DNA of 29,609 nt from Acidithiobacillus montserratensis (GTDB taxonomy: Bacteria; Pseudomonadota; Gammaproteobacteria; Acidithiobacillales; Acidithiobacillaceae): positions 1 through 29,609 of the forward strand of contig NZ_JABBOU010000060.1 in NCBI RefSeq assembly GCF_018853465.1, read 5' to 3'. Positions 1-20,000 of this stretch are shown here, one piece after another (position 1 is the stretch's first letter; each line of letters starts with the position of its first letter). The notes below the pieces were generated by a model, which worked only from the letters and a program-made list of their open reading frames with translations, did not search any database and was not told the DNA's origin. The position numbers were made by a program, and so were the translations under genes.

Positions 1-616
1 GCAACACTTTTAAATCCTGTGACATCCCGGTCATCATCCCGGGAATATCGTTCAAATTAGGGTTTCTGCGGACTCGCTTTACGGCATTATAATCCGCATC
101 AAAAAAGCTTAGATCAACACTCACCCCACCGCCACGATGGACTAGACAATGACCCAAACTACTGCAGACAGCCATTATCTGTGGACCGCTCAACACCAAG
201 CCAACCAGATCATCATTACCTGCTGATTCACAGAGCTTTTTCACTAATGAGTCAAAATTCTGGGAGACTTGAGCATTACCCGTTTCTTTTTGCTCAGGAG
301 TTTCATTTAAATTTAACCACGGATCTTGAGGGGTAAACTTTAAATCTTCCCGTAGTGACTGAACGAATCTATTAAGTTGTGAAAAAGCAGGCAGCTCCCC
401 TTCAATGGACATACTGACTAATGACAGACCGTTCGAAAGAATCAAGGTTATTTGTTGCTGGAATATGCCCCCGCTTTGATTCACCCGCGACTGTGTCAAT
501 CGTGCATATTGCGTTTCTTCCCCATAAACTTTGGCAAAGAGACGTTCTTTGCCGACCACAATCTGGTCGAGCCAGCCCGGTAATGCTTGAATGTAGGCAT
601 GCAAGCTAGCAATCAT
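1..616 (-). CDS. TldE/PmbA-like metallopeptidase partner subunit (N-terminal part, runs off left edge)
   Basis: An open reading frame starts with ATG at 616 and stays open to position 1, giving 205 codons without a stop. It begins MIASLHAYIQALPGWLDQIV. Its ATG overlaps the TGA of tldD (613-615) in an ATGA arrangement, so the two are probably translationally coupled. TldD and TldE (PmbA) are known to form a heterodimeric protease in which only TldD carries the HExxxH zinc site. The position directly after tldD, the size so far and the absence of an HExxxH motif in the visible part fit the TldE role. The similarity is not strong enough in this N-terminal part to be certain, and the C-terminal half is outside the window. 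The upstream ribosome site is weak (GGTGAT), as expected for a coupled gene. Confidence 0.7.
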   Translation of the reverse strand, partial: MIASLHAYIQALPGWLDQIVVGKERLFAKVYGEETQYARLTQSRVNQSGGIFQQQITLILSNGLSLVSMSIEGELPAFSQLNRFVQSLREDLKFTPQDPWLNLNETPEQKETGNAQVSQNFDSLVKKLCESAGNDDLVGLVLSGPQIMAVCSSLGHCLVHRGGGVSVDLSFFDADYNAVKRVRRNPNLNDIPGMMTGMSQDLKVL

Positions 617-2070
617 ATATCACCACCAAAGGTCTCAATATCACGAAATAAGCAAATCGGAGCGGCATGGCCCACAGTGATGACCTGATTAGGCTCACCT
701 TTCCCACAATAAGGCGTTCCTGAAACACGATAGGTGCTGCGGTCTCCCACAGCCGCCAAGGAATTCCAAAAATTCAAAGTGCGCCCTCGATAGTTGGGAT
801 TTTTAACCCAGCGGCCGACAACTCCATTTTCAATAAGACGTCCCCATTCACAACCAAATTGAAACTTATCGCGACGCTGATCGATAGACCAAGACCTATT
901 GACATCCATCCAGATTCCCTTTTCGATCTGGGACAGCATATCCTGAAAACTACTCCGGCCCGGCTCTAAATTAATATTGGCCATGCGATCGATGGGTTGC
1001 CGCAGAGGGTCACAGACGCGGGCACAGGCTACAGCTTCCATACCCGCTCGCGCGGAAGATCGCGCTCCACCCAGTGGACGCTGCAAAATACCATCCTTAA
1101 TTAGATAGTTAGCTGTGGCCGGAGTACCTTCATCATCATAAGCATACCCGGCAAGCTCCGTTTTTTCTCCAGGATCGAACAAAACATTGAGCAAAGGGCT
1201 ACCATATTGAAGCTTACCGAAGTCTGCGAGCTGGACGAAACTCCATCCTGCGTAATTTCTTTCGTCCCCCAGAATCCGGTCCAACTCTAATGGATGACCT
1301 ATACTTTCATGGATTTGCAGGGTCATTTGTGCTGGTGATAGGAGGATATCCATGACACCGGTTGGGCATTCCGATGCCGACAACAGCTCCAGTGCTTCAC
1401 CGGCGAGCAAGGTTGCCGTCTCTGGAGTGAATGTTAATGCCTTCAGAGTTTCGATATTCAATGCACCCTGCACATAGGGACCATAACTACGAGACTGAAC
1501 TTCATGGCCGTCGCTCGCGGTGACTTCCATAAAAGGCAAACACAAATGCGTTTCTTGGGCCTGTTCGGCTCCTGCGCTGTGAAGTAAAAAACGCTGTCTA
1601 TCCATACTCGTTAAGACAATGTGACGATCTTTGATACGCTCATCTATCATCAGCGCGGCATCCAGCCATTGCATATAGTCAAAACGCTCTTGCAAAGACA
1701 TGATTTCTCCCCCTGGGGATTGCCATTGTCCTTTGCTATGGGATTGAGGCCAATTTGCTGTATCCATGAGACGATAGTTTGCGAGCTGCTCTGCACGCTT
1801 TTTTGCACTGGTGATAGCTCTACGCAAACCCTCGTCGGTAAGATCAGTGGTTGACGCATAACTCACATTATCTTTTGTACCCAAGGTTATCAGCGCAGCT
1901 TTTAGTGTTTCACGCTCAGGAGCAGTAGCGACACCCCGCCGGAGTGAGACGCTCAATTGCGAGCGATCTTCTACCAAAACCGACCAATAAGCACATGACC
2001 TCAGCAAGTCCGCAGCGCGATATGCACTCGCTCGTAAACTTTCCGCCCTCGAAACGCTATGATCCGACAT
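613..2070 (-). CDS. tldD: TldD-family zinc metallopeptidase
   Basis: The 485-residue product has the normal length of TldD. The zinc site is visible as HESIGH at residues 254-259 (HExxxH), and a late Cys in the motif YCGKGEPNQ (about residue 455) matches the third metal ligand described for E. coli TldD. TldD/TldE pairs act in the cytoplasm on peptides, including microcin B17 maturation and CcdA degradation in E. coli. The start ATG at 2070 is preceded by GGAG at good spacing. The gene begins 16 bases after the importer ATPase stop, on the same strand, so it belongs to the peptide transporter operon. That context suggests it processes an imported peptide, which is inference. It is clearly divergent from housekeeping TldD and may be a paralogue. 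Confidence 0.88.
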   Translation of the reverse strand: MSDHSVSRAESLRASAYRAADLLRSCAYWSVLVEDRSQLSVSLRRGVATAPERETLKAALITLGTKDNVSYASTTDLTDEGLRRAITSAKKRAEQLANYRLMDTANWPQSHSKGQWQSPGGEIMSLQERFDYMQWLDAALMIDERIKDRHIVLTSMDRQRFLLHSAGAEQAQETHLCLPFMEVTASDGHEVQSRSYGPYVQGALNIETLKALTFTPETATLLAGEALELLSASECPTGVMDILLSPAQMTLQIHESIGHPLELDRILGDERNYAGWSFVQLADFGKLQYGSPLLNVLFDPGEKTELAGYAYDDEGTPATANYLIKDGILQRPLGGARSSARAGMEAVACARVCDPLRQPIDRMANINLEPGRSSFQDMLSQIEKGIWMDVNRSWSIDQRRDKFQFGCEWGRLIENGVVGRWVKNPNYRGRTLNFWNSLAAVGDRSTYRVSGTPYCGKGEPNQVITVGHAAPICLFRDIETFGGDI

Positions 2071-2086
2071 GAACGCACTCCATATT

Positions 2087-3070
2087 TTACTGCCTTACCA
2101 GCAAAGGAAAATGGCAGGCGACCTGATGGCCCGTGCTCAAGGATTGAAGCGATGGTCTCTCACTACTGCAGCGGGCCTCGGCCTTGGGACAGCGGGTATG
2201 AAAGGCACAACCTGATGGTGGATTGACGGGTGAAGGCGGCTCACCCACGGGCATGGGCAGATGGGTGGCCGTATTTTGTCGCACCATCAGCGGTAAAGCA
2301 TCCATCAAAGAAGCGGTATAGGGATGTGCCGGATTGGCAATGAGGGTAGCTGTCGGGGCCACTTCGACGATGCGCCCCAGGTACAGGACGATAATGCTTT
2401 GTGCCAGGTAGGACACGGCCCCCAGATCGTGGCTGATAAACACATAACTGAGCCCCATTTCTTTCTGCAAATCTTGTAAAAGATTCAAAATACGGGCCTG
2501 CATCGAAACATCCAGCCCGGAGGTCGGCTCATCCAAGACCAGCAGCTGTGGTTCCGTGCTCAACGCTCGGGCGATGGCAATACGCTGGCGCTGCCCACCC
2601 GAATATTGCCCTGGATAGCGATTCATCGCCCGTCGGTCCAAACCCATCCTTTCCAGGAGCGCTTCCGCCTTCTGCCGTCGGGTACTACTGTTGCCCAGCC
2701 TTTGCAGCAACAAGGGTTCCATGATGATCTGCCCTACCGTCATGCGCGCATTCATGGAATCAAAGGGATCCTGAAAAACCATCTGCATCTGCTGACGGTA
2801 AGGCCGCATCTTTTTTTCACTGAGTGTGGTCAAGTTTGTACCATTGAGGCACACCTCCCCGGCACTGGGACGCACCAAGTGCAGAATCGCTCGCCCCAGT
2901 GTACTCTTCCCGGATCCCGATTCCCCAATCAGCCCGACAGTTTGCCCCTGCTCCAAGCCAAAGTGAATATCACTTAAAGCATGAATGGTGCCTTGGCTCT
3001 GTCGGAGGATTCCCCCCTCTCCCAGCTGAAAGCGCACATCCAGATTTTTGACTTCCAGCCAGTGGCTCAT
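2087..3070 (-). CDS. peptide ABC transporter ATP-binding protein (OppF/DppF type)
   Basis: This is one of two ATPases that power a dipeptide/oligopeptide importer at the inner membrane. Visible motifs are Walker A ([12 protein letters not shown]), the ABC signature YSGGQRQRIAIARAL and Walker B with LLVLDEPTSGLDVS. The C-terminal extension with GCAFHTRCP is the typical oligopeptide-transporter tail. The frame extends further upstream, but the start at 3070 ([14 protein letters not shown]) is preferred. It has GGAGGT just upstream, it matches the family N terminus, and it overlaps the stop of the preceding ATPase as ATGA. The product is then 327 residues, a normal length. Substrate specificity cannot be read from an ATPase. 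Confidence 0.93.
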   Translation of the reverse strand: MSHWLEVKNLDVRFQLGEGGILRQSQGTIHALSDIHFGLEQGQTVGLIGESGSGKSTLGRAILHLVRPSAGEVCLNGTNLTTLSEKKMRPYRQQMQMVFQDPFDSMNARMTVGQIIMEPLLLQRLGNSSTRRQKAEALLERMGLDRRAMNRYPGQYSGGQRQRIAIARALSTEPQLLVLDEPTSGLDVSMQARILNLLQDLQKEMGLSYVFISHDLGAVSYLAQSIIVLYLGRIVEVAPTATLIANPAHPYTASLMDALPLMVRQNTATHLPMPVGEPPSPVNPPSGCAFHTRCPKAEARCSSERPSLQSLSTGHQVACHFPLLVRQ

Positions 3071-4140
3071 GCCGCACCTCCCACTGGATGGACACAGAAA
3101 AAATGGTGGGCATCCGTGCCCGTTCGTTCTGGATACACCGTCAAACATTCGGGGGTCATGGCCGGACAGCGCTCCGCAAATCGACAACCCCGGGGAAACT
3201 CCTGGGGACGGGGCGGTAGTCCATCGATATCCGTGAGTCGCTTACCCGCACTTATGAGCCGGGGAATGGCATTCAATAGGGCCTGACTGTAAGGATGGCG
3301 GGGCGCCTGAAAAAATTCCTCCGCCGAACCCTGTTCAACCGTTTTCCCTGCATAAAGCACCATCACCTTCTGCGCATACTCCGCCACCAGTGAAAGATCA
3401 TGGGTGATAAAAATGACGGCCATTCCCTGCTCTTTCTGTATGCGCTGGATCAAACGCAAAATCTGGGCCTGATTGATTACGTCCAGAGCGGTGGTGGGTT
3501 CATCGGCAATGAGCAAACGCGGATTACAGGCCAGGGCCATGGCAATCATCACGCGTTGCCGCATTCCTCCGGAAAACTGATGAGGATAATCATCCAGTCG
3601 TTTTTCGGCATCAGGAACACCGACTTCTTTGAGTAATTTCAGCGCGTGATCACGAGCAGCCGATACCGACGCACCACAATACAAGCGATAAGGTTCGGCA
3701 ATCTGCTGGACAATCGTGAGGCTCGGGTTGAGTGAAGATAAAGGATTCTGAAAAATCATCCCGATTTCTCGACCACGGGCCGTCCGCAAGGCAGCGTTGG
3801 ATAAGCGGGTCATTTCTGTCTCACCCAAACGGACGGAACCACTACTTACGCGCCCACCCCACGGTAACAAACCCATCAGTGCCGCAGCCGTCATGGATTT
3901 GCCAGAGCCTGACTCCCCCACCAATCCCAGGGTTTCACCCGCAGCTATATCAAAACTGAGGTCTTCAATCACCTGAAAAGCTTTACGCCCGCGCCCGAAC
4001 GTCACGCTCAGATTTCGCACCTGCAAGCCTGTCGTTGCGCTTGAATAGGATCGCTCTTCGTGATGATGCACTATTCGGTCACTGCGCATGTCCGTTTCCC
4101 GCAACGGGATATGTGAACGATGGAGCGCTTTGTCTGTCAT
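3067..4140 (-). CDS. peptide ABC transporter ATP-binding protein (OppD/DppD type)
   Basis: This is the second importer ATPase, partner of the OppF/DppF-type protein downstream. Walker A ([12 protein letters not shown]), the signature [15 protein letters not shown] and Walker [14 protein letters not shown] are intact, and the C-terminal GCRFAERCP motif is the OppD/DppD tail. The start at 4140 (MTDKALHRS) is chosen because GGAGGG lies nine bases upstream and it follows the permease stop (4142-4144) after one base. This gives 357 residues. A later Met ([10 protein letters not shown]) is possible. About 35 N-terminal residues precede the ABC domain and look poorly conserved. Confidence 0.93.
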
Positions 4141-4141
4141 G

Positions 4142-5053
4142 TTAACGGCCCTCCAATCGTGCCAGCAGTCCTTGACCCAGCACATTCATGGCGACAATCG
4201 CCAGGAAAATAGCCACCCCAGGAAAGACAATGAGCCACCAGGGGCCAATAATCACCAGTTGCAGTCCATCATTGAGCAAGCCACCCCAGGATGCGTGGGG
4301 GGGCTGTATCCCCAGCCCTAGAAAGGACAACCCGGAAAGCGCCAAGATCAGATCCGCGACCATAAAGGTGGCATTCACAATCAGAATCGGCAACATGGAG
4401 CGCAGCAGATGCACGCGGGCGATATATAAGGTACTCGCCCCGAACTGCCGGGCGGCCAGCACATAGTCTCTTTCTTTATAAGCCAGCGCCTCATTGCGCA
4501 CAATGCGGGCCAGCCCCGGCCAGGACAAACAACCCAGGACCAAGATGAGGCTCAAGGTGTTGAGCGGAATAATCGCCGCGAAAAAAATCATCAAGACAAT
4601 GCCCGGCAGGGCCAGTAATGCATCCAGCAGACGCATCAATACCTTATCCAGCCAGCGTGGACTCATGGCAGCGACCATGCCATACAAAATTCCCAAAAAC
4701 ATGGCAATCACAGCACCCAGCAAACCGACTTCGAGCGTCGCTTTGCCTCCGTCCATCATCCGGGCGAGCATGTTCCTCCCCAGATTATCGGTGCCAAAGG
4801 GATATTGCCAGGAAGGGGCCAACAATAAGTGATTGGCATGAATGGCCAACGGGCTCACCGGGTAAAGTAACGGACCCACCCAGGAAAACAAGAGCAAAAA
4901 AACAAACAAGCCCAGACCGGTCCAGGTCATGGGATGACTGTACTGCCCCACCCAATGACGCAAGGAGTCCGTCCAAATTCGCGTAAACATGCCCGGTATG
5001 GGACGTGCGACCAGGCTGTTATTCACATTCATATCAGTTGGACTACTACTCAT
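4142..5053 (-). CDS. peptide ABC transporter permease (OppC/DppC type)
   Basis: This is an inner-membrane permease subunit with the OppC/DppC layout: an N-terminal segment and first membrane helix (VFLLLFSWVGPLLYPV), a periplasmic loop with PFGTDNLGRNMLARM, then a block of membrane helices. The cytoplasmic ATPase-contact loop reads YKERDYVLAARQFGAS. The start at 5053 (MSSSPTDMN) gives 303 residues and overlaps the end of the preceding permease gene by eight bases. Other starts at 5068 or 5032 are possible, and none has a strong ribosome site, which fits coupled translation. It pairs with the OppB/DppB-type permease to form the channel. Confidence 0.92.
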   Translation of the reverse strand: MSSSPTDMNVNNSLVARPIPGMFTRIWTDSLRHWVGQYSHPMTWTGLGLFVFLLLFSWVGPLLYPVSPLAIHANHLLLAPSWQYPFGTDNLGRNMLARMMDGGKATLEVGLLGAVIAMFLGILYGMVAAMSPRWLDKVLMRLLDALLALPGIVLMIFFAAIIPLNTLSLILVLGCLSWPGLARIVRNEALAYKERDYVLAARQFGASTLYIARVHLLRSMLPILIVNATFMVADLILALSGLSFLGLGIQPPHASWGGLLNDGLQLVIIGPWWLIVFPGVAIFLAIVAMNVLGQGLLARLEGR

Positions 5054-6008
5054 AACGCACCCGTACATCGAGAATACTGTTGGTAAGATCTGCTGCCAGA
5101 TTGCCGAGAATCGTCAGCACGCCGATGAGCAGCACGATGGCGGATAGGGTGGGATAATCCTGTTCCAGCGCCGAACGCCATAACAGCCAGCCCAGACCGG
5201 GGTAATTGAACACACTCTCCGTCAAAATCCCACCGACAAAAATGCCGGGAATCATCATACCGATCACCGTAACCAGAGGTCGGATGGCGTTGCGGAGCAC
5301 ATGATTCACAGCGATGCGCAGGGGCGGCACGCCCCTGGCCCGTGCCGTGCGCACATAGTCCAAGCGATATTCACTCCGGGCCTGATGCCCGAAATAACGG
5401 GATAATCCAGCCGTCAATGGCAAGGCAATCGTGATAGCCGGCAGGACCATATGGTGAAAATAACTGCCAATGTTGAGCGCTCCCCCGGCACTCTGATCGC
5501 CGCCAATACCACCAGGTGGGAACCAACTCACATAAATAGCGAAAAACAGAATCAGCATGACGCCAATAAAAAACGTGGGAATGGAATAGACAATGATCTG
5601 ACCGGCGCCTATCAGCACACCCGGCGTACGTTCTGCCCAGTAGCCCTGAAACATGCCAATCAAGACGGAAAAGAAAATCGCAATCACCGTCGCCAGCACA
5701 TAAAGAATGATGGAATTGGCTAGATAAGATCCCATCAGGGAGGCCACAGGCGCATGCTGGGTGAATGAATACCCCAAATTCCCCTCGAAAAGGTGCTCCC
5801 ACCAGATGGCATACTGCTGCCAGAGGGGATGATCGAGACCCATTTCTTTATTCAAGGCCGCGACCGCTTCCGGTGTGGCATGCATTCCGAGAATACTGTA
5901 AGCCGGACCACCGGGAGTCGCGTGAATCAGAAAAAATACGATCGTCACCAGCAGAATGAGGGACAATGCAGAGGTCCGCAAGCGATTGAAAATCATGCGT
6001 CGCAGCAT
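5046..6008 (-). CDS. peptide ABC transporter permease (OppB/DppB type)
   Basis: This 320-residue permease starts with the usual OppB/DppB helix (LILLVTIVFFLIHATPGGP). It carries the conserved LGLDHPLW-type segment as MGLDHPLWQQYAIWWEHLF, the GNLGYSF motif, and the cytoplasmic coupling loop DYVRTARARGVPPLRIAVNH. It ends VFNYPGLGWLLW followed by a last helix, as in the family. The ATG at 6008 has AGGAG eight bases upstream. It sits 43 bases after the binding-protein gene and overlaps the next permease. The family moves di- and oligopeptides, but some members move nickel, glutathione or metallophores, so the substrate is open. Confidence 0.93.
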   Translation of the reverse strand: MLRRMIFNRLRTSALSLILLVTIVFFLIHATPGGPAYSILGMHATPEAVAALNKEMGLDHPLWQQYAIWWEHLFEGNLGYSFTQHAPVASLMGSYLANSIILYVLATVIAIFFSVLIGMFQGYWAERTPGVLIGAGQIIVYSIPTFFIGVMLILFFAIYVSWFPPGGIGGDQSAGGALNIGSYFHHMVLPAITIALPLTAGLSRYFGHQARSEYRLDYVRTARARGVPPLRIAVNHVLRNAIRPLVTVIGMMIPGIFVGGILTESVFNYPGLGWLLWRSALEQDYPTLSAIVLLIGVLTILGNLAADLTNSILDVRVRYE

Positions 6009-6051
6009 CAGAAATTACTCCTGAGAGTTATTCAGAATGAGCAAAAAACTA

Positions 6052-7695
6052 TTATTTATCATGACTCACCCATAGATATTGAGGATTAAAACCACCAGAA
6101 GGGGTTATGGCGCGACTAACACCATGAATATTTTTAGCAGCCATCACAAAAATTTTCATGTTAGGAAGAACGATAACAGGCTGCTGCTCGGTAAAATAGT
6201 TTTGAAACTTATAGAGGGCACTCAATCCTGGAGTTACCCGAATTTTAGCCATAAGTGAATCCATTTTATGGTTACAATAATGATAACTGTTCTGAACCCC
6301 ACCACATTTGAAAATAGACCCACCCGTGGGAAAACCGGATTGTGACCAAGCCAGATAGACAGCTTGCCATTTTTTATTATGAGGATCGATCATTTGCGCA
6401 TAGACTTCATTAAAAGGCATTTCTCTGAGTCGTACCTGAATGCCCACTTTAGCAAACATGGTTGCCAATAATGTAGGTCCTCGAACCATGGAGGGTGGCA
6501 TATACATGGTGAAAGCCATTTTTTGACCATTTTTTTCACGAATACCATCAGGACCACGATGCCAGCCTGCTTCGTCTAACAGATTGTCAGCCAGTTCCGG
6601 GTTGTAGGCGCCGTGTTTAAGCAGGGACTTAGCCTCAGGAGACAAATAAATGGGTGGATTGCCGGGAATCAGACCGTAAGCACGCGAACCATAACCGTAA
6701 TTCATCACATCAATCATCAAATCTTGATTAACGGCATGCATCATAGCCTGACGAACCAATAGATTATTAGTAAATGCAATTTTTGGGTTCAAAAAGTTGA
6801 ATCCCAGATAGTTAAATCCCCATATCGGACCAACAATCGTTAAATGGTCATTCGTTAACTGTTTACGTGCTGGATACAATGAGGCCGGCAAATTACCCAA
6901 TTGTACCGCATTACTTTTCAATGCAAAAAATACACTGGCATTAGAGTTCAGAAACTGGAAAATCAAACGACTAATATGTGCCTTATCAGGTCCACTATAG
7001 GCTTTGTTAGGAACGAAACTGGCATATCTTCCAGGATGAAAACTTTGTAAACGAAAAGGGCCATCCACGACAGAGTAAAATTGTGGATTGGTCATATTAT
7101 CGTTCATCTGCTTAACCGAATAATGCTCCCAGCTATGTGCTGGATAAGGATTGAAATAGGACAATCCCGACAATTCAAACCAACGGGGATTCACCGATTT
7201 CTTGGTAATCACCCTAAAGGAAAAAGGACCCAACACCTTGAAGGATTCAATATCATTTGGAAAACCACCACTGTCCCATCCTGGATACAATGGACCAAGT
7301 TTCATGAGCATTTTATAGGTATATGATATATCCGCCGTAGTAACCGTTACACCATCAGACCATTTCCAATGCCTGTGCAGATATACGGTAAAGCTTCGGT
7401 GCTTCGGACCCACTACAACCTTTTTGGCAACGCTCAACTTGAAGTTGATCTTGAAATCACGATTCACCCAAAACAGAGACTGGTACATCAAGCCCTCTGC
7501 CTCGGAATCATAGGCAGAAGATGTGAGGAAGGGATTAAAACCATTCATCGCAGCAGGGGGAGCCAATCCCACTCCTGGAACAGTAACAATAGTACCACCA
7601 TTCTGAATCTTTGCCGGAACACTTGCATAGCAGTCAATCGCCACGATGAAGAAGATCAAAAACAGTACCAACTGTTCAACTTTGATTCTCTTCAC
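6052..7695 (-). CDS. periplasmic solute-binding protein, family 5 (peptide/nickel type)
   Basis: This is the substrate-capture protein of the importer, 547 residues. It has a cleavable-looking signal peptide (VLFLIFFIVAIDCYA, cut near CYA-S) and no clear lipobox. The family-5 layout is visible: the segment WKWSDGVTVTTADISYTYK, a long central domain, and the late segment beginning LLDEAGWHRGPDGI. The start is GTG at 7695; in-frame upstream there is a TAA with no ATG in between. The ribosome site is weak. It is more AT-rich than the permease and ATPase genes behind it, so it may have a different history or be under faster change. It is the first gene of the operon that ends with tldD/tldE. The ligand is unknown. 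Confidence 0.9.
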   Translation of the reverse strand: MKRIKVEQLVLFLIFFIVAIDCYASVPAKIQNGGTIVTVPGVGLAPPAAMNGFNPFLTSSAYDSEAEGLMYQSLFWVNRDFKINFKLSVAKKVVVGPKHRSFTVYLHRHWKWSDGVTVTTADISYTYKMLMKLGPLYPGWDSGGFPNDIESFKVLGPFSFRVITKKSVNPRWFELSGLSYFNPYPAHSWEHYSVKQMNDNMTNPQFYSVVDGPFRLQSFHPGRYASFVPNKAYSGPDKAHISRLIFQFLNSNASVFFALKSNAVQLGNLPASLYPARKQLTNDHLTIVGPIWGFNYLGFNFLNPKIAFTNNLLVRQAMMHAVNQDLMIDVMNYGYGSRAYGLIPGNPPIYLSPEAKSLLKHGAYNPELADNLLDEAGWHRGPDGIREKNGQKMAFTMYMPPSMVRGPTLLATMFAKVGIQVRLREMPFNEVYAQMIDPHNKKWQAVYLAWSQSGFPTGGSIFKCGGVQNSYHYCNHKMDSLMAKIRVTPGLSALYKFQNYFTEQQPVIVLPNMKIFVMAAKNIHGVSRAITPSGGFNPQYLWVSHDK

Positions 7696-7823
7696 GAAGA
7701 GGCACTCTCTTCTAACAACAGAAGTGTATTCTTATGGACAAGATCTGCGAAAACCATATACCCATAAAAAATAATGTAATATTTATAGAAACTCTTAATA
7801 ATGAACAATTGACTACTCTCCAT

Positions 7824-7838
7824 GAAACTTCTGTGCCA
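7824..7838 (-). promoter_or_regulatory. candidate sigma-54 promoter for the importer operon
   Basis: On the minus strand the sequence reads TGGCAC-AGAAG-TTTC followed by A. The -24 box is perfect (with the preferred pyrimidine before it). The -12 box has TTTC where TTGC is expected, a mismatch at one of the two nearly invariant bases. A transcript from here would have a leader of roughly 115 bases before the GTG at 7695. The mismatch lowers confidence, but the -24 shares the hexamer and following A with the stronger promoter before the receptor gene. Confidence 0.4.
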
Positions 7839-8029
7839 GACGAAGCATAAAGCAAACTTCATACCTGCAATGGCGGTTGCATGCTTATCAGCACTCAAAC
7901 AAAACCCAACTAACTTTTTTCTTTCAAATGGTTAGAAAAGGTGTTGGGGGCCATAATAAAAAAATACAAAGAATCCCGCTTGCTATTTCAGCCTACTCAA
8001 TGACAGCATTCTGCCCGAATTTTAATTAT

Positions 8030-8046
8030 CGCACCACTATAGTGCG
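8030..8046. promoter_or_regulatory. NtrC-like dyad (candidate enhancer site)
   Basis: The sequence CGCAC-CACTATA-GTGCG is a perfect 5-base dyad with a 7-base centre. It fits the NtrC pattern GCACY-N5-RGTGC, seen here as GCACC-ACTAT-AGTGC. It lies about 190 bases upstream of the candidate -24 box of the importer operon, a normal enhancer distance, and about 470 bases from the receptor promoter. A single match in AT-rich DNA could be chance. Confidence 0.5.
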
Positions 8047-8300
8047 TCTTTTTCGGTCTTTCACAAACTCGGCCCAAAGTGCACAAAATAGTATTATCTT
8101 TAATTATCATGGTAGTATGTTATTTTTAATACCAATAACATATATAGACTTAGTAGATATTTAGGTCTTTCCACTTAACGATACCACCAGCTATCAAAAG
8201 GCTTACATATCATATAGTTATAATATTTCAGTTGGTTGGGAATATTTCTCGGCAATTGATATCTTATTTTTTGATGACTAGCTCACTCGATAAAATACTG

Positions 8301-8340
8301 ATGCACCAATTAAAAGCATCAGCAACTTGGTATGCACCAA
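8301..8340. repeat. direct repeat ATGCACCAA x2, 31-base spacing, second copy inside a dyad
   Basis: ATGCACCAA occurs at 8301-8309 and 8332-8340, 31 bases apart, or about three helical turns. The second copy lies in the inverted repeat TTGGT-ATGC-ACCAA (8327-8340), and the first is flanked by GATGC...GCATC. The block sits about 175-210 bases upstream of the receptor's -24 box, so it is a candidate upstream activator site. It contains GCACC half-sites but not a full NtrC dyad. Confidence 0.4.
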
Positions 8341-8435
8341 AAGAGACAGAAAATCATACAGTCACTCTCATTAGGTATAGCTCGAAAACAGAGAAACTTC
8401 CTTAACAAATACACATACGTAATATTTTTTTCATT

Positions 8436-8480
8436 GTTTATCATAAACATGTTAATTTTTTGATAAAGATTTTCATTCGT
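8436..8480. promoter_or_regulatory. AT-rich palindrome and Fur-like box upstream of receptor promoter
   Basis: GTTTAT-C-ATAAAC (8436-8448) is a perfect 13-base palindrome. Twelve bases later, 8462-8480 (GATAAAGATTTTCATTCGT) matches 13 of 19 positions of the classical Fur box. AT-rich DNA gives such partial matches by chance, so this is only a candidate operator. If real it would point to iron control of the receptor. Confidence 0.3.
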
Positions 8481-8512
8481 TTTTACAACAAAGGACCTAG
8501 CTATTGTCGTAT

Positions 8513-8528
8513 TGGCACAACAGTTGCT
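8513..8528 (+). promoter_or_regulatory. sigma-54 (-24/-12) promoter of the TonB-dependent receptor gene
   Basis: The sequence TGGCAC-AACAG-TTGCT has the invariant GG and GC with exactly ten bases between them, and matches the consensus TGGCAC-N5-TTGCW in full, with T before the first T. The predicted transcript start is near 8540, leaving a leader of about 85 bases before the ATG at 8624. No comparably good sigma-70 promoter was seen nearby. Confidence 0.72.
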
Positions 8529-8623
8529 ATACTCAAGAGTCTAAGTTTATCAGCCTGCAAATTTTCATCGTTTCGCATTCCACTGTTAAACATTAGAAAA
8601 CTCTTATTCATTGGAGAAAAACT

Positions 8624-11095
8624 ATGCATTCAACCCCGAGCAACCTTCAAAGCAAAGTTAGACAGTCTGTAACGCGCAGGCCACAAAGTAGCAAACTGAT
8701 ATTAGTTGCAACTATGTTAGCCCTTTATCCCACCTTGAGCACCGCAGCCTTTGCGGCCACAGATAACGCCACTGTCAGCAGCCCGTCCAAGCAGGATACT
8801 GTTATCAAGCTCAAGGAAATCAAAAAGAAATATGAACGGCTATTAGTTGGCGAACGCAACATAGCCTCAGCCATGTCCGTCATTGGGCCTACCCAAATCA
8901 AGCATTCAAGCTCTGCTGAAAGTATCTATAGTCTTCTGAAGCAAACACCTTCGGTGAACGAATACCAACAGAATGTTGGGCCTGGCACCCCAGTGTTGAC
9001 GGTTCGTGGTGTCCGTATGAGCCAGCTGGCTCAAACCCTGGATGGCATTCCAATGACCGACCTTCTAGCAGGAGGGCAGGGAGCCTATCTCAGCAACAAC
9101 GTTGGAACCATCATCAGTAATGGCCAGATATCGGGCATTCATGTCTACCCCGGGGTTGCCCCCCCCGATCGCAGTGGTTTTGCAACCGTTGGCGGAACAG
9201 TGTCCTACACTACCAAGACCCCGCCCAAAAAACGCTATGCGGACATATTCACCAAGGTGGGGTCCTTTTCCACAGATACCTATGGTTTTGATGCCAGCAC
9301 CGGAAAAATTCCTGGTACGGATGGGTTACGTATCTATACCCGTTTGAGCCAAACCCAGACAGACGGTTATATCCAGAATACACCCGCCCGCTATACGGAT
9401 TTTCTCTTTACCGCTATCAAGCCTTATGACTACGGTTTATCAAAGGTAACCGGTACGGTGATCTACAATACGGCACACGGTTACTTGATCAGTGCACCTA
9501 ATGCGATAGCCCAACTGGATAAATATGGTATTTTTTACAACTACCCCTTGTCTGACGCCAGCACTTTCCAGAGAAACAGCTATCTTACTGCAATACTGGG
9601 TGATAGCACGTATATCAATAGTCATCTGGTCATTGGTGCAAAAGCTTTTTTTATACACAAGCAAAACTACTTGGCAGGATATCTTGCTCCCAAATACATT
9701 TCTCCTGATTATCCCTATCAAGTAAACTTCAATAATCCATACTCAGGATTTGGAAATTTAGTACCTACGACAGCTTCACCTGGTGTTATTCCTCACACAT
9801 ATAACCCTGTTGCTGTATTTGGTAGTTATCCCGCTGGTGAAGCCGCACAAATCAACATTAGTGGGGACACTACAATTGGTATAACGCCTAAAATTAATAT
9901 TTTCATTCCACATAACGATATAACTATCGGTGGTCTAGTAGCGCAGGAGACTGCGGGACCAGGAGGAGGAAACTATTTTTATGGTACATTAGACATGCCA
10001 CAAATTTATGGGTATAACTCCTATGGAAATCCTTTCTCGCCAACCAATGCCAAGCAGCAAAGAACAGTCTACAGCGGATACTTATCTGATAAAATCAATT
10101 TGATTGATAATAAGTTACATATAGAGCCTGGCGTAACGCTAACAGGTGTAAGTACCAGTAATTACGTTCCTGTTAATCAATACGGCACGCCACCCAATGC
10201 TTACACTTTGTCCAACTACGACAAAGAGGTGTTACCCTACCTTGGTTTATCCTATGACATTACGCACAAGATCATTGCTTATGCCAGTTATGGTAAGGGT
10301 GCTCGTTTTGCACCGGTAGACGACTATATTCTCGGTCCATCAGGTAGTACCACGGTTGCACCCGGGCCGGAGACGGTAAACGCTTATGAGGCTGGTCTGC
10401 GCTATGTGGGGAAACATCTCTATCTAAATTTTGATGGTTTCTTGCAAAATATGCATGGGATGTTTTCGTTTTACACCAACTACCTTACTGGCTTTTCGCA
10501 ATATGCCAATGTAGGTGAAGAGCAGATGAAAGGCTTAGAATTTTCCGGAAAATATGAAATCAATCCTGAGTGGACAGTATCAGGCCATGTTTCCTACACC
10601 AATGCCCAATACATGAACAGTTTTTCGGCCAATGTGACCCCATTTGAAGGGCAATATGGTTATGTATTTGCCGGAGACCCGCTCGCTTCTGTGCCCAACT
10701 GGCTGGCGGGGTTGCGCGTTGGATATCATCAGCACAACTTCCACGCGGCTTTGATTGAGTCGTACACCGGGCCGCAAGTAACGACTTATGACCTACCGCC
10801 GACTGAATCGAATCCTCTGTTGCAAGACGCAACCACTCCCAACCCCGGTGTCAAGCTTGCTCCTTATTTCCTCACCAATCTGCAGGCCAGTTATAAAGTG
10901 CCTATCCACAAGGATCATTTGTCGTCAGTGACCGTTAGTTTGAACATTGACAATCTTTTGGACAACCACTACTACCTGCACTACTATCAGGCATACAAGG
11001 AATATGCTTTTGAGGCAGTTGGAAATCCCTATGCCGAAGCTTACCCAGGGATGCCGAGATTTATTGAGTTAGGTCTTTCCGGACGCTTCTCATAA
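8624..11095 (+). CDS. TonB-dependent outer-membrane receptor
   Basis: This 823-residue protein has a signal peptide (ILVATMLALYPTLSTAAFA, cut near residue 45). A plug domain follows with LTVRGVRMSQLAQTLDGIPM and ISGIHVYPGVAPPDRSGFAT. The rest is a long stretch of alternating beta-strand sequence with the late receptor motif VSLNIDNLLDNHYY. It ends GLSGRFS, with one residue after the usual terminal Phe. No clear TonB box was identified; the segment before the plug (residues 55-80) is Lys-rich. The ATG at 8624 has GGAG eight bases upstream. It is divergent from a peptide importer and lies upstream of a tonB-exbB-exbD set, which suggests import of a peptide or peptide-like ligand. A siderophore or other metallophore is an alternative. 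Confidence 0.93.
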   Translation: MHSTPSNLQSKVRQSVTRRPQSSKLILVATMLALYPTLSTAAFAATDNATVSSPSKQDTVIKLKEIKKKYERLLVGERNIASAMSVIGPTQIKHSSSAESIYSLLKQTPSVNEYQQNVGPGTPVLTVRGVRMSQLAQTLDGIPMTDLLAGGQGAYLSNNVGTIISNGQISGIHVYPGVAPPDRSGFATVGGTVSYTTKTPPKKRYADIFTKVGSFSTDTYGFDASTGKIPGTDGLRIYTRLSQTQTDGYIQNTPARYTDFLFTAIKPYDYGLSKVTGTVIYNTAHGYLISAPNAIAQLDKYGIFYNYPLSDASTFQRNSYLTAILGDSTYINSHLVIGAKAFFIHKQNYLAGYLAPKYISPDYPYQVNFNNPYSGFGNLVPTTASPGVIPHTYNPVAVFGSYPAGEAAQINISGDTTIGITPKINIFIPHNDITIGGLVAQETAGPGGGNYFYGTLDMPQIYGYNSYGNPFSPTNAKQQRTVYSGYLSDKINLIDNKLHIEPGVTLTGVSTSNYVPVNQYGTPPNAYTLSNYDKEVLPYLGLSYDITHKIIAYASYGKGARFAPVDDYILGPSGSTTVAPGPETVNAYEAGLRYVGKHLYLNFDGFLQNMHGMFSFYTNYLTGFSQYANVGEEQMKGLEFSGKYEINPEWTVSGHVSYTNAQYMNSFSANVTPFEGQYGYVFAGDPLASVPNWLAGLRVGYHQHNFHAALIESYTGPQVTTYDLPPTESNPLLQDATTPNPGVKLAPYFLTNLQASYKVPIHKDHLSSVTVSLNIDNLLDNHYYLHYYQAYKEYAFEAVGNPYAEAYPGMPRFIELGLSGRFS

Positions 11096-11121
11096 TACGG
11101 CATCCTACTAACATTGCTTTT

Positions 11122-11150
11122 GACCCGGATTTTTATCCGGGTCGATTTTT
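11122..11150 (+). terminator. Rho-independent terminator after receptor gene
   Basis: A perfect 9-base stem GACCCGGAT / ATCCGGGTC with a TTTT loop is followed by GA and a run of five T. It lies 27 bases after the receptor stop codon. Confidence 0.93.
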
Positions 11151-11176
11151 GGTCCCCAAAAATTCGAGTTATAGAT

Positions 11177-11809
11177 GTGAATTCCAGTAATATAGAAATT
11201 TTTATACAAACATTAGTCACTTTGTTTGTGCTAATGGATCCCATTGGTATTGTTCCTATATTTGTGGTACTTACTAAAGACCAAAGCAGCGAACAACAAA
11301 AATCGACAGCTAAACATATTTCTTTGGTTGTAGTTTTAGTATTGATTATAAGCACACTATTTGGTAATGATATTCTTTCATACTTTTATATTGGTATTGC
11401 AGAATTTAAAGTCAGTGGCGGGCTTCTGCTTTTACTCATGTCCATACAGATGTTAACTACTGACAATATCAGCACGGTTTTTGCTAAAGGCGCATCACAA
11501 TCCTATAATAGTGGTCGCTTGGTTACCCCCTTGGGAATCCCTCTACTTGCAGGTCCTGGCGCCATTGGTACAGTGATTATTTATGGTCAAAATGCACACA
11601 GCTCTTTGAGTTACGGATTAATACTGATAGATGTTTTAATTGCTTCATTTACAGCATATATTGCTATGGCAAATGCCCATCATATTGCGCGCTTTTTAGG
11701 AGAGATTGGCATCGAAATTATTACAAAAATAGCAGGGCTTATTCTTGGAGCAATCGCCATACGTTTTATTTGTCAAGGATTAATCCAGTTGCTACCTGGA
11801 CTCAATTAA
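11177..11809 (+). CDS. MarC-family integral membrane protein
   Basis: The product is a small polytopic membrane protein with about six hydrophobic segments and the MarC/UPF0056 motifs: LFVLMDPIGIVPIFVVL near the N terminus, the middle segment PLGIPLLAGPGAIGTVI, and a C-terminal EIGIEIITKIAGLILGAIAI. The frame is open back to 11114, but that would put the start inside the terminator stem. The GTG at 11177 gives 210 residues with a normal family N terminus. Its ribosome site is weak. The function of MarC proteins is not established; the earlier link to multiple antibiotic resistance was withdrawn. It is the first gene of the AT-rich string. Confidence 0.85.
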   Translation: MNSSNIEIFIQTLVTLFVLMDPIGIVPIFVVLTKDQSSEQQKSTAKHISLVVVLVLIISTLFGNDILSYFYIGIAEFKVSGGLLLLLMSIQMLTTDNISTVFAKGASQSYNSGRLVTPLGIPLLAGPGAIGTVIIYGQNAHSSLSYGLILIDVLIASFTAYIAMANAHHIARFLGEIGIEIITKIAGLILGAIAIRFICQGLIQLLPGLN

Positions 11810-11823
11810 CGGGATAATTATTA

Positions 11824-12891
11824 ATGGATATCTCCATCATTGGAGCCAATGGCAGTACTGGTAAACACATAGCCAATCGCATATTATTGGAGCGAATTCT
11901 TCTGCCTACTGATCGATTACAATTAGTAGGTAGGGCAAAAGGATCCAGCGGACAAGCATTGTATGGATTTCGACAGGATCTGAAAGATGCTTTTGCAGAG
12001 CGTTGTCCCATTATTGATATTGCATTACATCCCGAAGAAGTGGTTGCAGATATTATCATCATGACCGCCGGATCGACCATTCAAGCCCATAATAATCCGG
12101 ACGCCCCACCACCAAGCCGAGATGAATTGGCCATATATAATCAACAAATTGCTATTCCTTATGCCGAAGCATTAGCAAAATATGGTCATGGTCATGAGGT
12201 GGTTATAGTCGTCACCAACCCTGTCGAATTGATTGTTGTAATTTTTTCGCAGCGTTATGACCGACACAGAGTGGTTGGAATGGGTGCATATCAAGATAGC
12301 CTACGCTTCCGTCGAGAAGTGGCTCGCTCTGTTAATGTGTCACGTGAAGCCGTTCATGCGATGGTCCTGGGTGAGCATGGTGATGGTATTGTTCCCGTAT
12401 GGAGCGGCGTCACCATTCAGGGTTTCTCCGACAATGAAACGCAGCGTGCAATTCGCACAGTTCGAAGCAGCATCAAAAGTATAGATTTTCCACAGACCTT
12501 ACTTCGAATGCGTAATGAGATCATAAAAATCGCACAAAAAGGCGACTTAGCCGAAGCTTTTCAGTTTTTTGATAAACTCCCTCCAGACATTCGAATTATG
12601 GTAGGTCCATTTCTAACCCTATTTTCTGGCACAAAAACCGATATTGCAACAGCAAATGCTACTATTGATTTTATTAAATCCATGCTCAGTGGTAAAGATA
12701 CTGTGATTGCAGCTCAAGTATCATTGGACAGAGAATTCATGAACGTTACCGCCCCTATAGGTGCCCCGGTAATTATCAGCCCTAAGGGATGGGATGCCGT
12801 TTATCCTATATCTCTGTCTGATGGTGAACAATACCTATTTCTTGAAACCGCACGATCCATACAGGAGAAAATGCAAGTATGGAAAGTCTAG
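11824..12891 (+). CDS. lactate/malate dehydrogenase family protein, probably NADP-dependent
   Basis: The fold is readable: nucleotide-binding loop GANGSTG (residues 7-13), a substrate loop with SRDEL (Arg 99), VTNPVE (Asn 132), Asp 158 and Arg 161 in QDSLRFR, and the catalytic His 185 in GEHGD. The Asp-His pair and the Args needed for a 2-oxoacid reduction are present. At the end of the second strand, where NAD enzymes have an acidic residue, this protein has LVGRAKGSSG. That basic/Ser-rich loop resembles NADP-type malate dehydrogenases. At 355 residues it is longer than usual (about 310), with extra sequence around residues 230-275. Malate is the likelier substrate given the Arg in the mobile loop, but this is inference. 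It overlaps the ACT-domain gene. Confidence 0.82.
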   Translation: MDISIIGANGSTGKHIANRILLERILLPTDRLQLVGRAKGSSGQALYGFRQDLKDAFAERCPIIDIALHPEEVVADIIIMTAGSTIQAHNNPDAPPPSRDELAIYNQQIAIPYAEALAKYGHGHEVVIVVTNPVELIVVIFSQRYDRHRVVGMGAYQDSLRFRREVARSVNVSREAVHAMVLGEHGDGIVPVWSGVTIQGFSDNETQRAIRTVRSSIKSIDFPQTLLRMRNEIIKIAQKGDLAEAFQFFDKLPPDIRIMVGPFLTLFSGTKTDIATANATIDFIKSMLSGKDTVIAAQVSLDREFMNVTAPIGAPVIISPKGWDAVYPISLSDGEQYLFLETARSIQEKMQVWKV

Positions 12892-13151
12892 AAAATGAAC
12901 CACTCCCGGAACAAGTGATCATATTGATCGTTCGCGATCAACCAGGAACCTTGTTCCAGATTTCTGCTGTATTCTCTAATCGTGGCATATCCATGAGTAG
13001 TATTCAGCTCCATGAGGAGTCAATTCCATGCAACGGCAAACGCTGTACTCGCTTGATCATACGTTTCTTCGGTGAAGAGAGTCGAAAAAAAATCATCATT
13101 CGTTTGCTTTCAAGGCTTGACTGTGTGTTAGAATCTGACGATTCTGGTTAG
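12879..13151 (+). CDS. stand-alone ACT-domain protein
   Basis: The 90-residue protein is essentially one ACT domain: strand VIILIVRDQPGTLFQISAVF, then SNRGISMSSIQLHEES, a short Cys-containing loop (IPCNGKRCTR) and a closing strand and helix. ACT domains bind small ligands, usually amino acids, and regulate a partner enzyme. Its ATG at 12879 lies inside the dehydrogenase gene (13-base overlap) with AGGAG upstream, so the two are translationally coupled. The natural inference is that it senses an amino acid and controls the dehydrogenase. The two Cys seven residues apart are unusual and might be redox- or metal-active. Confidence 0.82.
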   Translation: MESLENEPLPEQVIILIVRDQPGTLFQISAVFSNRGISMSSIQLHEESIPCNGKRCTRLIIRFFGEESRKKIIIRLLSRLDCVLESDDSG

Positions 13152-14636: not shown

Positions 14637-15035
14637 ATGATTCCACGTCGAAGAAATAGTAAAAAAGGTCGCGTCGAAATTATTCCAATGATCGACGTTA
14701 TGCTCTTTTTGCTGGTCTTTTTCATTATGATCACTTTACAAATGATCACTGACAAAGGCCTCAAACTTCAGTTACCGACCTCTAGTACGGCAAAAGAGTT
14801 GCCGCACCCGCATTTTGTAATCAATATAGAGAAAAACGGTAAGGTTATTGTCAAAGGTAAAGAGATGCCTCTGGATCAATTGCAGAGTTTTCTTAGTGCT
14901 GATGGTGATGTAGAGCATACCCAGGTGACTATAGCCGCAGACAAAGTGGTGCCTTTCCAGCAATTCGTACATGTGATGGATACTTGTCAAAAGGCTGGCG
15001 TAACACAAATTGGCATAGCCACTAAGGCTACATAG
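14637..15035 (+). CDS. exbD: TonB-system proton-channel protein ExbD
   Basis: The 132-residue product has one N-terminal membrane helix with the essential Asp (Asp 20 in IIPMIDVMLFLLVFFIMIT) and a small periplasmic domain ending in VMDTCQKAGVTQIGIATK, as in ExbD/TolR. The Asp is the proton-carrying residue of the family. AGGAG stands six bases before the ATG. The stop is only five bases before astB, so the motor and the arginine pathway genes appear to share a transcript. Confidence 0.93.
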   Translation: MIPRRRNSKKGRVEIIPMIDVMLFLLVFFIMITLQMITDKGLKLQLPTSSTAKELPHPHFVINIEKNGKVIVKGKEMPLDQLQSFLSADGDVEHTQVTIAADKVVPFQQFVHVMDTCQKAGVTQIGIATKAT

Positions 15036-16378: not shown

Positions 16379-16404
16379 TATTTATTTTTAACTTACAATA
16401 TTTT

Positions 16405-17388
16405 ATGTATATACGTCCCGTGAAAGAAAACGACTTAGATGCGCTTTTTTTATTCTTGCGCCAATCAAAAACTGAGCTTACCAGCCTTCCAAAAAACAAA
16501 AATTCTCTTGCAGAAAAAATAGCGCAATCCAGCGCCAGTGAAAATTTTCAGGAGTTAGCCGATTGGCATCGATGTTTAATGGTTCTTTATGATCCTGTAA
16601 ACGATACTATAGCTGGTATTAGCGGTCTTGAGCGTGAGAAATCATGTGCGCCACATTATATTATAGATCAAACTAATAAATGCCTCAGATTTTCAACAGC
16701 AGCAGTCAGCCCCATAAAACTAGGATCTTTGCTAATTCATGAAGAATATCGTAATTATGGACTTGGTGGATTACTTTCAAAAGCTCGTTTCTTGTATCTT
16801 GCCAACTTTTCACATCCTATTGCTGACCACATTCATGCTGAACTTAGAGGTTGGGTAGACAATAATGGTAGAAGCCTTTTTTGGGAAAAAATCAGCAGTT
16901 CATTTTACGATGGAAGCTTCTCAAGCATAGATCAATATCGCGGGACTCATCCAGAAATATTTTTTGAAAGCCATATTGCCGCGCATAACATTCCTTTTTT
17001 TCTTATTGAAGATGATGTGAAACAAGTGATAGGTACGGTACATAAAGATACTGAAAATGCCAAAAGAATGTTGGAAAAAGAGGGTTTTACACACACAGAT
17101 TGTGTAGACATACTTGATGGAGGACCTATCCTGAAGTCCACCTTAAAAAATGTCTTTACCATTAAAAAAAGCAGCCTTTTTTCTGTAAGCACCAACCGCG
17201 AAAATGAAAAAATATCTGAAACATGGATGATATCCAATATTAAGGTAAACGGATTTCGCGCTGGTATATATCCAGCCGCACATCGCTCTGGTCATCTATA
17301 TGTTCACCCACAGACACTTGCTGCTTTAGAATTAGATCCAGATGATCTTGTTCGCGCGGTTCCCAAAAACGCTGCTCATCAGAGGTAA
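16405..17388 (+). CDS. astA: arginine N-succinyltransferase
   Basis: AstA transfers succinyl from succinyl-CoA to arginine, the first step of the AST pathway. The 327-residue product (E. coli 344) begins MYIRPVKENDLDALF and contains LTSLP, SKARFLYLANF, AELRGWVDNNGRSLFWEKI, VHKDTENAKRMLEKEGF and the sequence VDILDGGPILK, all at the expected places. The gene lies 26 bases after astB. The order is astB-astA, the reverse of the E. coli astCADBE order, and astC, astD and astE are not in the window. No good ribosome site precedes the ATG at 16405; the leader is AT-rich. Confidence 0.93.
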   Translation: MYIRPVKENDLDALFLFLRQSKTELTSLPKNKNSLAEKIAQSSASENFQELADWHRCLMVLYDPVNDTIAGISGLEREKSCAPHYIIDQTNKCLRFSTAAVSPIKLGSLLIHEEYRNYGLGGLLSKARFLYLANFSHPIADHIHAELRGWVDNNGRSLFWEKISSSFYDGSFSSIDQYRGTHPEIFFESHIAAHNIPFFLIEDDVKQVIGTVHKDTENAKRMLEKEGFTHTDCVDILDGGPILKSTLKNVFTIKKSSLFSVSTNRENEKISETWMISNIKVNGFRAGIYPAAHRSGHLYVHPQTLAALELDPDDLVRAVPKNAAHQR

Positions 17389-17875: not shown

Positions 17876-17937
17876 CCCTTGGACTTGTCATCACCGCCAT
17901 CCATGCCCCAGAATCAAATCCCATGACGACCACGACC

Positions 17938-19140: not shown

Positions 19141-19161
19141 ATCACTTATGAAGGAGTTGTC

Positions 19162-19986
<825 letters not shown>

Positions 19987-20000
19987 AGGAAGTTTTATCC

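What the first reader, a model, noticed from the sequence alone, without database searches (positions are those of the whole stretch)
1..11095. Outer-membrane-to-cytosol peptide route: TonB-dependent receptor divergent from an ABC peptide importer operon that ends in tldD-tldE
The genes for a binding protein, two permeases, two ATPases, TldD and a TldE-like partner lie in one direction with overlaps or gaps of at most 43 bases, and a TonB-dependent receptor is divergent from them. TldD/TldE are known to act on peptides, including modified ones such as microcin B17. An importer operon ending in this peptidase pair suggests a dedicated system to take up and open a particular peptide class that ordinary peptidases cannot handle, or to disarm a peptide toxin. 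The gene order is seen; the joint function is inference.
Basis: partly seen in the sequence, partly recalled or inferred. Interest (0 to 1): 0.75.

Follow-up and report, generated by a model that had tools for sequence, protein, structure and literature searches.

The report
Acidophile peptide importer with TldD/E protease
A sulfur-oxidising acid-loving bacterium carries, side by side, the parts for pulling small peptides through both of its membranes and a protease pair that could cut them up; the same set recurs in other acid-loving bacteria, but what it imports is not known.

Summary
The gene order is real. The window is a whole contig of an Acidithiobacillus genome. A TonB-dependent receptor (TBDR) stands divergent from a family-5 binding protein, OppBCDF and a non-canonical TldD/TldE pair. 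tldE is cut by the contig end but continues on contig C119 (114-base overlap), followed by a second binding protein, a GNAT and an ABC half-transporter. tonB-exbB-exbD lie on the receptor's strand.

It is not strain-specific. Of 56 genomes searched, nine in two families carry the importer: TldD/E is in the operon in 6 of 9, the receptor within about 8 kb in 8 of 9. In two Acidihalobacter genomes exbB-exbD-tonB-TBDR-SBP-oppBCDF-tldDE-SBP2 run in one direction. A probable A. ferrooxidans genome lost tldDE and keeps a deletion scar; an A. ferrooxydans genome has a D-Ala-D-Ala dipeptidase instead. TldD keeps its zinc ligands. The binding protein is nearest the oligopeptide binder AppA. No Fur box exceeds chance.

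Best reading: a TonB-powered oligopeptide uptake route with an exchangeable cytosolic peptidase slot. The substrate is unknown, and the peptide-toxin idea has no support. The probable A. ferrooxidans counterpart is annotated as a siderophore receptor, so the reading is testable against an old puzzle.

The parts
2..616 (-). TldE/PmbA-like partner, N-terminal 205 aa; gene cut by the contig end, remainder on contig C119
   Evidence: ORF; orthologs L114 71%, L115 41%; no Pfam or NCBIfam hit for this N-terminal piece; C-terminal part L120:17044-17793; 114-base contig overlap; no HExxxH
613..2070 (-). Non-canonical TldD metalloprotease, HESIGHPLELD at residue 254, CGK with Cys455
   Evidence: PF19289 104 bits, PF01523 22.1 bits; aligned with E. 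coli TldD 5nj5; motif check
2087..3070 (-). OppF-type ATPase (longest ORF to 3187)
   Evidence: PF00005, PF08352; 96% in A. marinus
3067..4185 (-). OppD-type ATPase
   Evidence: PF00005, PF08352
4142..5068 (-). OppC-type permease
   Evidence: PF00528; Opp4C best NCBIfam model, under its cut-off
5046..6008 (-). OppB-type permease
   Evidence: PF00528, PF19300; ortholog in 6 of 29 family genomes
6052..7695 (-). Family-5 solute-binding protein, AppA-like
7696..8623 (.). AT-rich divergent intergenic region; best Fur-box-like match 13/19, not above chance
8624..11095 (+). TonB-dependent receptor; the named relatives (18 of 108) are all from acidophile genera
   Evidence: PF00593, PF07715; relatives; orthologs
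11114..11809 (+). MarC-family membrane protein, conserved in the neighbourhood
   Evidence: PF01914
11824..12891 (+). Lactate/malate-dehydrogenase-like protein
   Evidence: PF00056/PF02866; below the NCBIfam cut-offs
12879..13151 (+). ACT-domain protein
   Evidence: PF01842
13221..13922 (+). TonB
   Evidence: PF03544
13959..14606 (+). ExbB-like protein (label by resemblance, recalled; not profile-tested)
   Evidence: ORF; orthologs in G011, G016, G019
14637..15035 (+). ExbD-like protein (label by resemblance, recalled; not profile-tested)
   Evidence: ORF; orthologs in G011, G016, G019
15041..16378 (+). AstB, N-succinylarginine dihydrolase
   Evidence: TIGR03241 568.7 bits over cut-off 538.3; neighbour also in G016, G006, G019; remnant in G011; G014 stretch not fetched that far
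16405..17388 (+). AstA-like succinyltransferase, below the AstA equivalog cut-off
   Evidence: TIGR03244 207.1 of 391

Best explanation
The locus encodes a TonB-energised route for oligopeptides. The TBDR, powered by the neighbouring TonB-ExbB-ExbD, would move a peptide across the outer membrane; the AppA-like binding protein and OppBCDF would move it into the cytosol. There a non-canonical TldD/TldE heterodimer would cut it, probably to supply amino acids or nitrogen. The cytosolic peptidase slot is exchangeable: TldD/E in most members, a D-Ala-D-Ala dipeptidase in one, nothing recognised in two. Shown here: gene order, conservation across genera, intact catalytic motif, loss scar, nearest structural relative of the binding protein. 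Inferred: that the receptor and importer share a ligand, that the ligand is a peptide, that TldD/E acts on it, and the nutritional purpose.
For: (1) Conservation: the importer (OppB query) occurs in 6 of 29 genomes of the family, with tldD after oppF in 4 of those 6. The binding protein also occurs in 3 of 27 genomes searched around G671, G671 included, where tldDE is in 2 of 3. (2) In G671 and G771 exbB-exbD-tonB-TBDR-SBP-oppBCDF-tldDE-SBP2-M20 hydrolase run in one direction (M20 profile-tested in G771). (3) The TBDR lies within about 8 kb of the importer in 8 of 9 such genomes. 18 of 108 TBDR hits and 11 of 66 SBP hits carry organism names; all 18 and 9 of the 11 are acidophile genera. Six longest-contig lengths are shared between the two lists. 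(4) HExxxH, Glu, Asp, Cys and Lys positions of TldD are conserved and TldE lacks the motif, as in E. coli TldD/E (PMC5810440, passages). (5) The SBP is nearest AppA by sequence and structure; App is said to import 5-10-residue peptides (PMC10569065, passages). (6) Other hydrolases of peptide-type bonds sit at the homologous loci: DdpX-type dipeptidase over cut-off, M20, C26. (7) Operon-linked TldD sequences group together, support 90/85. (8) No Fur box above chance in 9 regions. (9) A different Opp lineage (OppB 27% identical) is next to TldD/E in one direction in Noviherbaspirillum.
Against: TldD/E is absent in 3 of 9 genomes with the importer, so it is not needed for whatever the importer does. 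TldD relatives are common without an importer: only 5 of 115 loci have OppB and OppC within the fetched flanks, some of them short, and one of the five is A. marinus. The SBP fold also matches nickel-binding proteins at close Z. The TBDR model matches PqqU, Fiu and FecA about equally, so its ligand is undetermined. The TBDR family also occurs in G002, where no importer ortholog was found, and as further copies in G006. No TBDR was found near the importer of G761, and G770, of G671's genus, has no binding-protein match. The clade support is moderate. M20 and C26 enzymes have many substrates besides peptides (recalled). No expression data.
Confidence: 0.6

Rival explanations
1. Iron or metallophore uptake: the receptor takes a ferric siderophore or metal chelate and the family-5 importer carries it, as in NikA- or opine-type systems; TldD/E would trim a peptide part of the ligand.
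For: The A. ferrooxidans genome paper lists the probable counterpart receptor (tdrF, AFE2998, assigned by me from gene order) among siderophore receptors (PMC2621215, passages). SBP_bac_5 includes NikA, and NikA/NikZ structures are close to the SBP model. Most of the listed structural matches of the TBDR are iron receptors.
Against: No Fur box above chance in 9 upstream regions, tested with one consensus only. TonB-siderophor model 92.9 of 223.5 bits. SBP nearest AppA. Peptide hydrolases at homologous loci. No siderophore biosynthesis gene recognised among the window proteins scanned.
Confidence: 0.17
2. TldD/E is a passenger: a receptor plus importer pair works alone, and the protease genes sit in the operon without sharing its substrate.
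For: Loss in G014 with a scar and absence in G006 and G761; the TldD family is usually not near importers.
Against: Retained in the operon across two families with a start-stop overlap of tldD and tldE; all four close TldD orthologs among the 25 family genomes searched with TldD are in this operon; a different peptidase is in the operon of G761.
Confidence: 0.17
3. Self-protection: the locus imports and destroys, acetylates or expels a toxic peptide (Trojan-horse type).
For: TldD/E degrades unfolded and modified peptides in E. coli (PMC5810440, passages); a GNAT and an ABC half-transporter follow in the operon.
Against: An importer brings a toxin in rather than keeping it out; importer and receptor persist where TldD/E was lost; no peptide-maturation enzyme was recognised among the proteins scanned, though small precursor peptides were not searched for.
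Confidence: 0.05

Closest known systems
E. coli TldD/TldE (PmbA) heterodimeric metalloprotease
   Same: HExxxH, Glu, Asp, Cys and Lys positions in TldD; partner without the motif (PMC5810440 passages)
   Different: Far below the canonical TldD cut-off (66.5 of 513 bits); the same genome has two other loci of the family elsewhere; here in an importer operon
App/Opp/Dpp peptide ABC importers
   Same: Family-5 binding protein, two BPD permeases, two ATPases with oligo_HPY tails; SBP nearest B. subtilis AppA
   Different: The NCBIfam cut-offs of the best Opp/Dpp models are missed; two binding proteins and a TBDR with its own TonB-ExbB-ExbD
E. coli ddpXABCDF (D,D-dipeptide importer with its dipeptidase; recalled)
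   Same: Importer operon with a cytosolic peptidase; the A. ferrooxydans genome has a DdpX-type enzyme over the cut-off
   Different: TldD/E in place of DdpX in most members; a TBDR is added
P. aeruginosa SppR-SppABCD (seen only as a title in a reference list)
   Same: A TBDR (SppR) beside a Dpp-like importer (recalled)
   Different: No TldD/E (recalled); described as a putative xenosiderophore transporter; not compared by sequence here

Membership tests
PmbA/TldD superfamily | PmbA_TldD domains over Pfam cut-off | tested here: met
   PF19289 104/22 and PF01523 22.1/20.9 bits for TldD; TldE ortholog L114 PF19289 73.5/22; the window's TldE piece itself has no hit
Catalytic TldD/TldE heterodimer | HExxxH plus distal Cys in TldD, absent in TldE | tested here: met
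Catalytic TldD/TldE heterodimer | Heterodimer formation and peptide cleavage | not testable with these tools
   needs purified proteins
Canonical TldD (NF008006 / PRK10735) | Equivalog cut-off 513 bits | tested here: not met
   66.5 bits
Oligopeptide ABC importer (Opp/App/Dpp type) | SBP_bac_5, two BPD_transp_1 permeases, two ABC_tran/oligo_HPY ATPases | tested here: met
Oligopeptide ABC importer (Opp/App/Dpp type) | Over a named equivalog cut-off | tested here: not met
   e.g. Opp4A 127.1/650, Opp4B 236/450, Opp4C 226.3/350
Oligopeptide ABC importer (Opp/App/Dpp type) | Binds and transports peptides | not testable with these tools
   fold nearest AppA, but NikA/NikZ close
TonB-dependent transporter | Plug and beta-barrel domains | tested here: met
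   PF07715, PF00593
TonB-dependent siderophore receptor (TIGR01783) | Subfamily cut-off 223.5 bits | tested here: not met
   92.9 bits
Fur-regulated iron uptake locus | Fur box upstream | tested here: inconclusive
   9 regions, none better than first-order Markov shuffles (window best 13/19, P 0.27), but with a single recalled consensus and no trained matrix

The most novel reading that the evidence does not exclude
The locus is an acidophile-specific salvage route for peptides with non-standard bonds, such as peptidoglycan or other D-amino-acid or gamma-linked peptides shed in acid biofilms. One TonB-driven entry pathway would feed interchangeable specialist peptidases (TldD/E, DdpX-type, C26 and M20 hydrolases), and some of the many 'siderophore receptors' of acidithiobacilli would really be peptide receptors.
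Probability: 0.15. Interest if true: 0.8.

Novelty: new variant of a known kind. Interest (0 to 1): 0.52.

Why it matters
PMC2631029 (section 6 read) notes that acidithiobacilli carry many predicted Fe(III)-siderophore receptors despite abundant soluble iron, some of them similar only to receptors of Acidiphilium. If this receptor imports peptides, part of that paradox goes away, and these chemolithoautotrophs gain a dedicated organic-nitrogen route. It would also give TldD/E, known mainly from microcin and RiPP maturation, a nutritional partner, and a concrete set of genes in which to test substrate and receptor together.

Tried and rejected
Fur-box idea: noted early at about 8463-8481; dropped, since the match is no better than chance and the orthologous regions have none either.

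Single-strain artefact: rejected.

OppF-TldD or TldE-SBP2 fusions in Acidihalobacter suggested by long ORFs: rejected as high-GC frame artefacts; translation shows separate genes, tldD and tldE of G771 overlapping by ATGA.

Plasmid-borne spread: no SBP or TBDR hit in 72,556 plasmid records at the limits used (1e-40 and 1e-60).

Acidiphilium context: not reached; the draw of 385 genomes of G223's class held no close SBP (9 genomes with a match at 1e-30, 27-31% identity). Evidence there is indirect (names and shared contig lengths).

PQQ link: the TBDR model's best Foldseek hit is PqqU, and TldD/TldE are implicated in PQQ supply in Gluconobacter (PMC8602642, passages), but Fiu and FecA score about the same, so not pursued.

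Burkholderiales association: loose. Of the 26 genomes, all fetched (some contigs short), 3 have OppB/OppC, at 3.8 kb or more from TldD or on the other strand (L142, L145, L148). L066 is separate and close-set.

Internal promoters or terminators in 1900-6200: at chance level (2 found, 3.2 expected; 5 found, 4.9 expected).

Literature: eight searches. In the listings shown I saw no paper on a TBDR-Opp-TldD/E locus; only open-licence PMC papers are held, and supplements could not be read.
Full report
What was checked. The window is the complete contig C136 of a 2.83-Mb genome in 178 contigs. Its nearest named relatives at this locus are Acidithiobacillus marinus SH (L034; 84-98% identity over nine shared genes) and Acidithiobacillus sp. 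M4-SHS-6 (TldD 90%, TBDR 89%). The genes named in the finding are present on the stated strands with the gaps given. The TldE piece has no profile hit of its own and is identified by its orthologs. The genome has two further loci of the PmbA/TldD family, on C144 and C99, so the pair in the window is an additional, divergent one (66.5 of 513 bits to the canonical TldD model).

The operon is longer than the window. The first 114 bases of the window are identical to the last 114 of contig C119. C119 carries the rest of tldE, a second family-5 binding protein, a GNAT and an ABC protein; the ABC ortholog in G011 has ABC_membrane and ABC_tran domains. On the receptor side the same strand continues with MarC, an LDH-like protein, an ACT protein, TonB, ExbB- and ExbD-like proteins, AstB and an AstA-like protein.

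Conservation within the family. OppB orthologs (E <= 1e-110) are in 6 of 29 family genomes: G000, G006, G011, G014, G016 and G019. A close TldD ortholog is in 4 of these (G000, G011, G016, G019) and in no other of the 25 family genomes searched with TldD; the remaining four were not searched with it. It stands after oppF in all four. The receptor is near the importer in all 6. It is divergent and adjacent in G000, G016 and G006. In G011 and G014 two DUF3857 genes lie between. In G019 it lies about 7.6 kb away, beyond tonB-exbBD-astBA (79% identity).

Conservation outside the family. Among 27 genomes searched around G671, 3 have the binding protein, G671 included; another genome of its genus, G770, does not. 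G671 and G771 have exbB-exbD-tonB, TBDR, SBP, oppB, oppC, oppD, oppF, tldD, tldE, SBP2 and an M20 hydrolase in one direction (M20 profile-tested in G771). tldD and tldE overlap by ATGA in G771 and by four bases in the window. G761 has no TldD/E and no TBDR hit in the 30 kb fetched, but a D-alanyl-D-alanine dipeptidase over its cut-off (235.3 of 176 bits) between binding-protein genes. In all: TldD/E in 6 of 9, TBDR within about 8 kb in 8 of 9.

Acidophile distribution. Of 108 TBDR relatives, 18 carry organism names, all Acidithiobacillus, Acidihalobacter, Acidiphilium or Acidocella (which scored only the 7993 candidates sharing most words). Of 66 SBP relatives, 11 carry names: 9 from Acidithiobacillus, Acidihalobacter, Acidiferrobacter or Acidiphilium, and two metagenome bins labelled Planctomycetia and Janthinobacterium. 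Six longest-contig lengths are shared between the two lists (19157, 19454, 57059, 3363634, 7509, 8454). This is indirect evidence of linkage; equal lengths can also coincide. That these genera are acidophiles is general knowledge.

Loss of tldDE. The first runs through the end of oppF to about codon 12 of tldD, the second is 62 bases inside tldE (codons 374-393 by tblastn), and the third begins at the end of tldE. This is a deletion scar, so the pair was once there. No such remnant was recognised in G006. The A. ferrooxidans genome paper lists a dipeptide ABC system AFE2987-92, receptor tdrF AFE2998 and tonB/exbB/exbD numbers including AFE3002-04 (PMC2621215, passages). The numbering fits the order found in L118, but the assignment is mine by gene order.

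Protease. The window TldD has HESIGHPLELD at residue 254 and Cys455 in CGK. G011 and G019 have the same HExxxH pattern and CGK, and so does G671; none of the five TldE pieces tested has HExxxH. In E. coli the two His and Cys454 bind the metal, Lys456, Glu270 and Asp272 brace the cleft, and activity needs both subunits (PMC5810440, passages). In a 59-row tree the operon-linked TldD of Acidithiobacillaceae and Acidihalobacter fall together with relatives from the protein search (16 rows, 90/85, below the starred level), apart from the group of 21 mostly Pseudomonas rows (97/99).

How specific is the link? TldD relatives are common: one search listed 120 of 7930 hits, and one search found them in 12 of 398 phylum genomes, the window's own included. 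In 115 fetched loci OppB and OppC are in the flanks of 5: A. marinus, Noviherbaspirillum (two binding proteins, one further gene, then OppB-OppC-OppDF-TldD-TldE close-set in one direction), L142, L145 and L148. The link is therefore typical of the acidophile operon and rare elsewhere, with one clear case of another importer lineage.

Binding protein and receptor. AppA (1xoc) is the best solved match for the SBP by sequence (2.6e-27), Foldseek E-value and Z (36.1), but AapF, DppA, NikZ and NikA follow closely. The SBP model has mean pLDDT 89.5. App is reported to import 5-10-residue peptides (PMC10569065, passages). The receptor model (pLDDT 78.3) matches PqqU, Fiu and FecA about equally, with FhuA and others close behind, so its ligand is open. 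No PDB sequence match to the receptor was found at 1e-3.

Regulation. In 9 upstream regions the best match to a 19-base Fur consensus never beat first-order Markov shuffles (P 0.27 or worse). This speaks against, but does not exclude, iron control. Promoter-like sites in the divergent region are at a chance level (5 found, 3.9 expected).

Judgement. The interpretation as an outer-membrane-to-cytosol peptide route is the best available (0.6). The specialised substrate and the toxin idea are unproven. The system is a new variant of known kinds; the one paper found that lists its probable A. ferrooxidans genes treats receptor and importer separately, as iron uptake and dipeptide uptake.

Noticed in passing
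window 15041-17388: AstB over its equivalog cut-off next to an AstA-like succinyltransferase; also neighbours of the receptor locus in G006, G016 and G019, with only a 49-codon astB remnant matched in G011. Whether the rest of the AST pathway exists was not tested.
   Followed up: partly
L114:16669-18510 and L118:13078-15021: Two DUF3857 proteins (one with a marginal transglutaminase-core match, one with DUF3858) lie between the receptor and the binding protein in G011 and G014 but not in the window.
   Followed up: partly
L136:15330-15884: DdpX-type D-alanyl-D-alanine dipeptidase inside the importer operon of an Acidihalobacter ferrooxydans genome.
   Followed up: yes
L127:1342-2100 and L136:6711-7583: Peptidase C26 (gamma-glutamyl hydrolase-like) genes beside the importer in Acidihalobacter; below NCBIfam equivalog cut-offs.
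   Followed up: partly
window 11824-12891: LDH-like protein far below the malate/lactate dehydrogenase cut-offs, in the neighbourhood in 6 of 6 family genomes with the importer; the ACT protein in the 5 of 6 whose fetched stretch reaches it.
   Followed up: partly
G006:C29:162599-167933: G006 has two more close receptor paralogs (68% and 60%) about 15.5 and 12.6 kb from the first, and a further binding-protein paralog at 160412-161956.
   Followed up: no
L066:67-12711: Noviherbaspirillum operon: two family-5 binding proteins, a further gene, OppB, OppC, fused OppDF, TldD, TldE, followed by efflux-pump-like genes (efflux label by resemblance, recalled).
   Followed up: partly
window 17872-21149: dapC-dapD-dapE of lysine/diaminopimelate synthesis directly downstream of the astBA-GNAT genes.
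   Followed up: no
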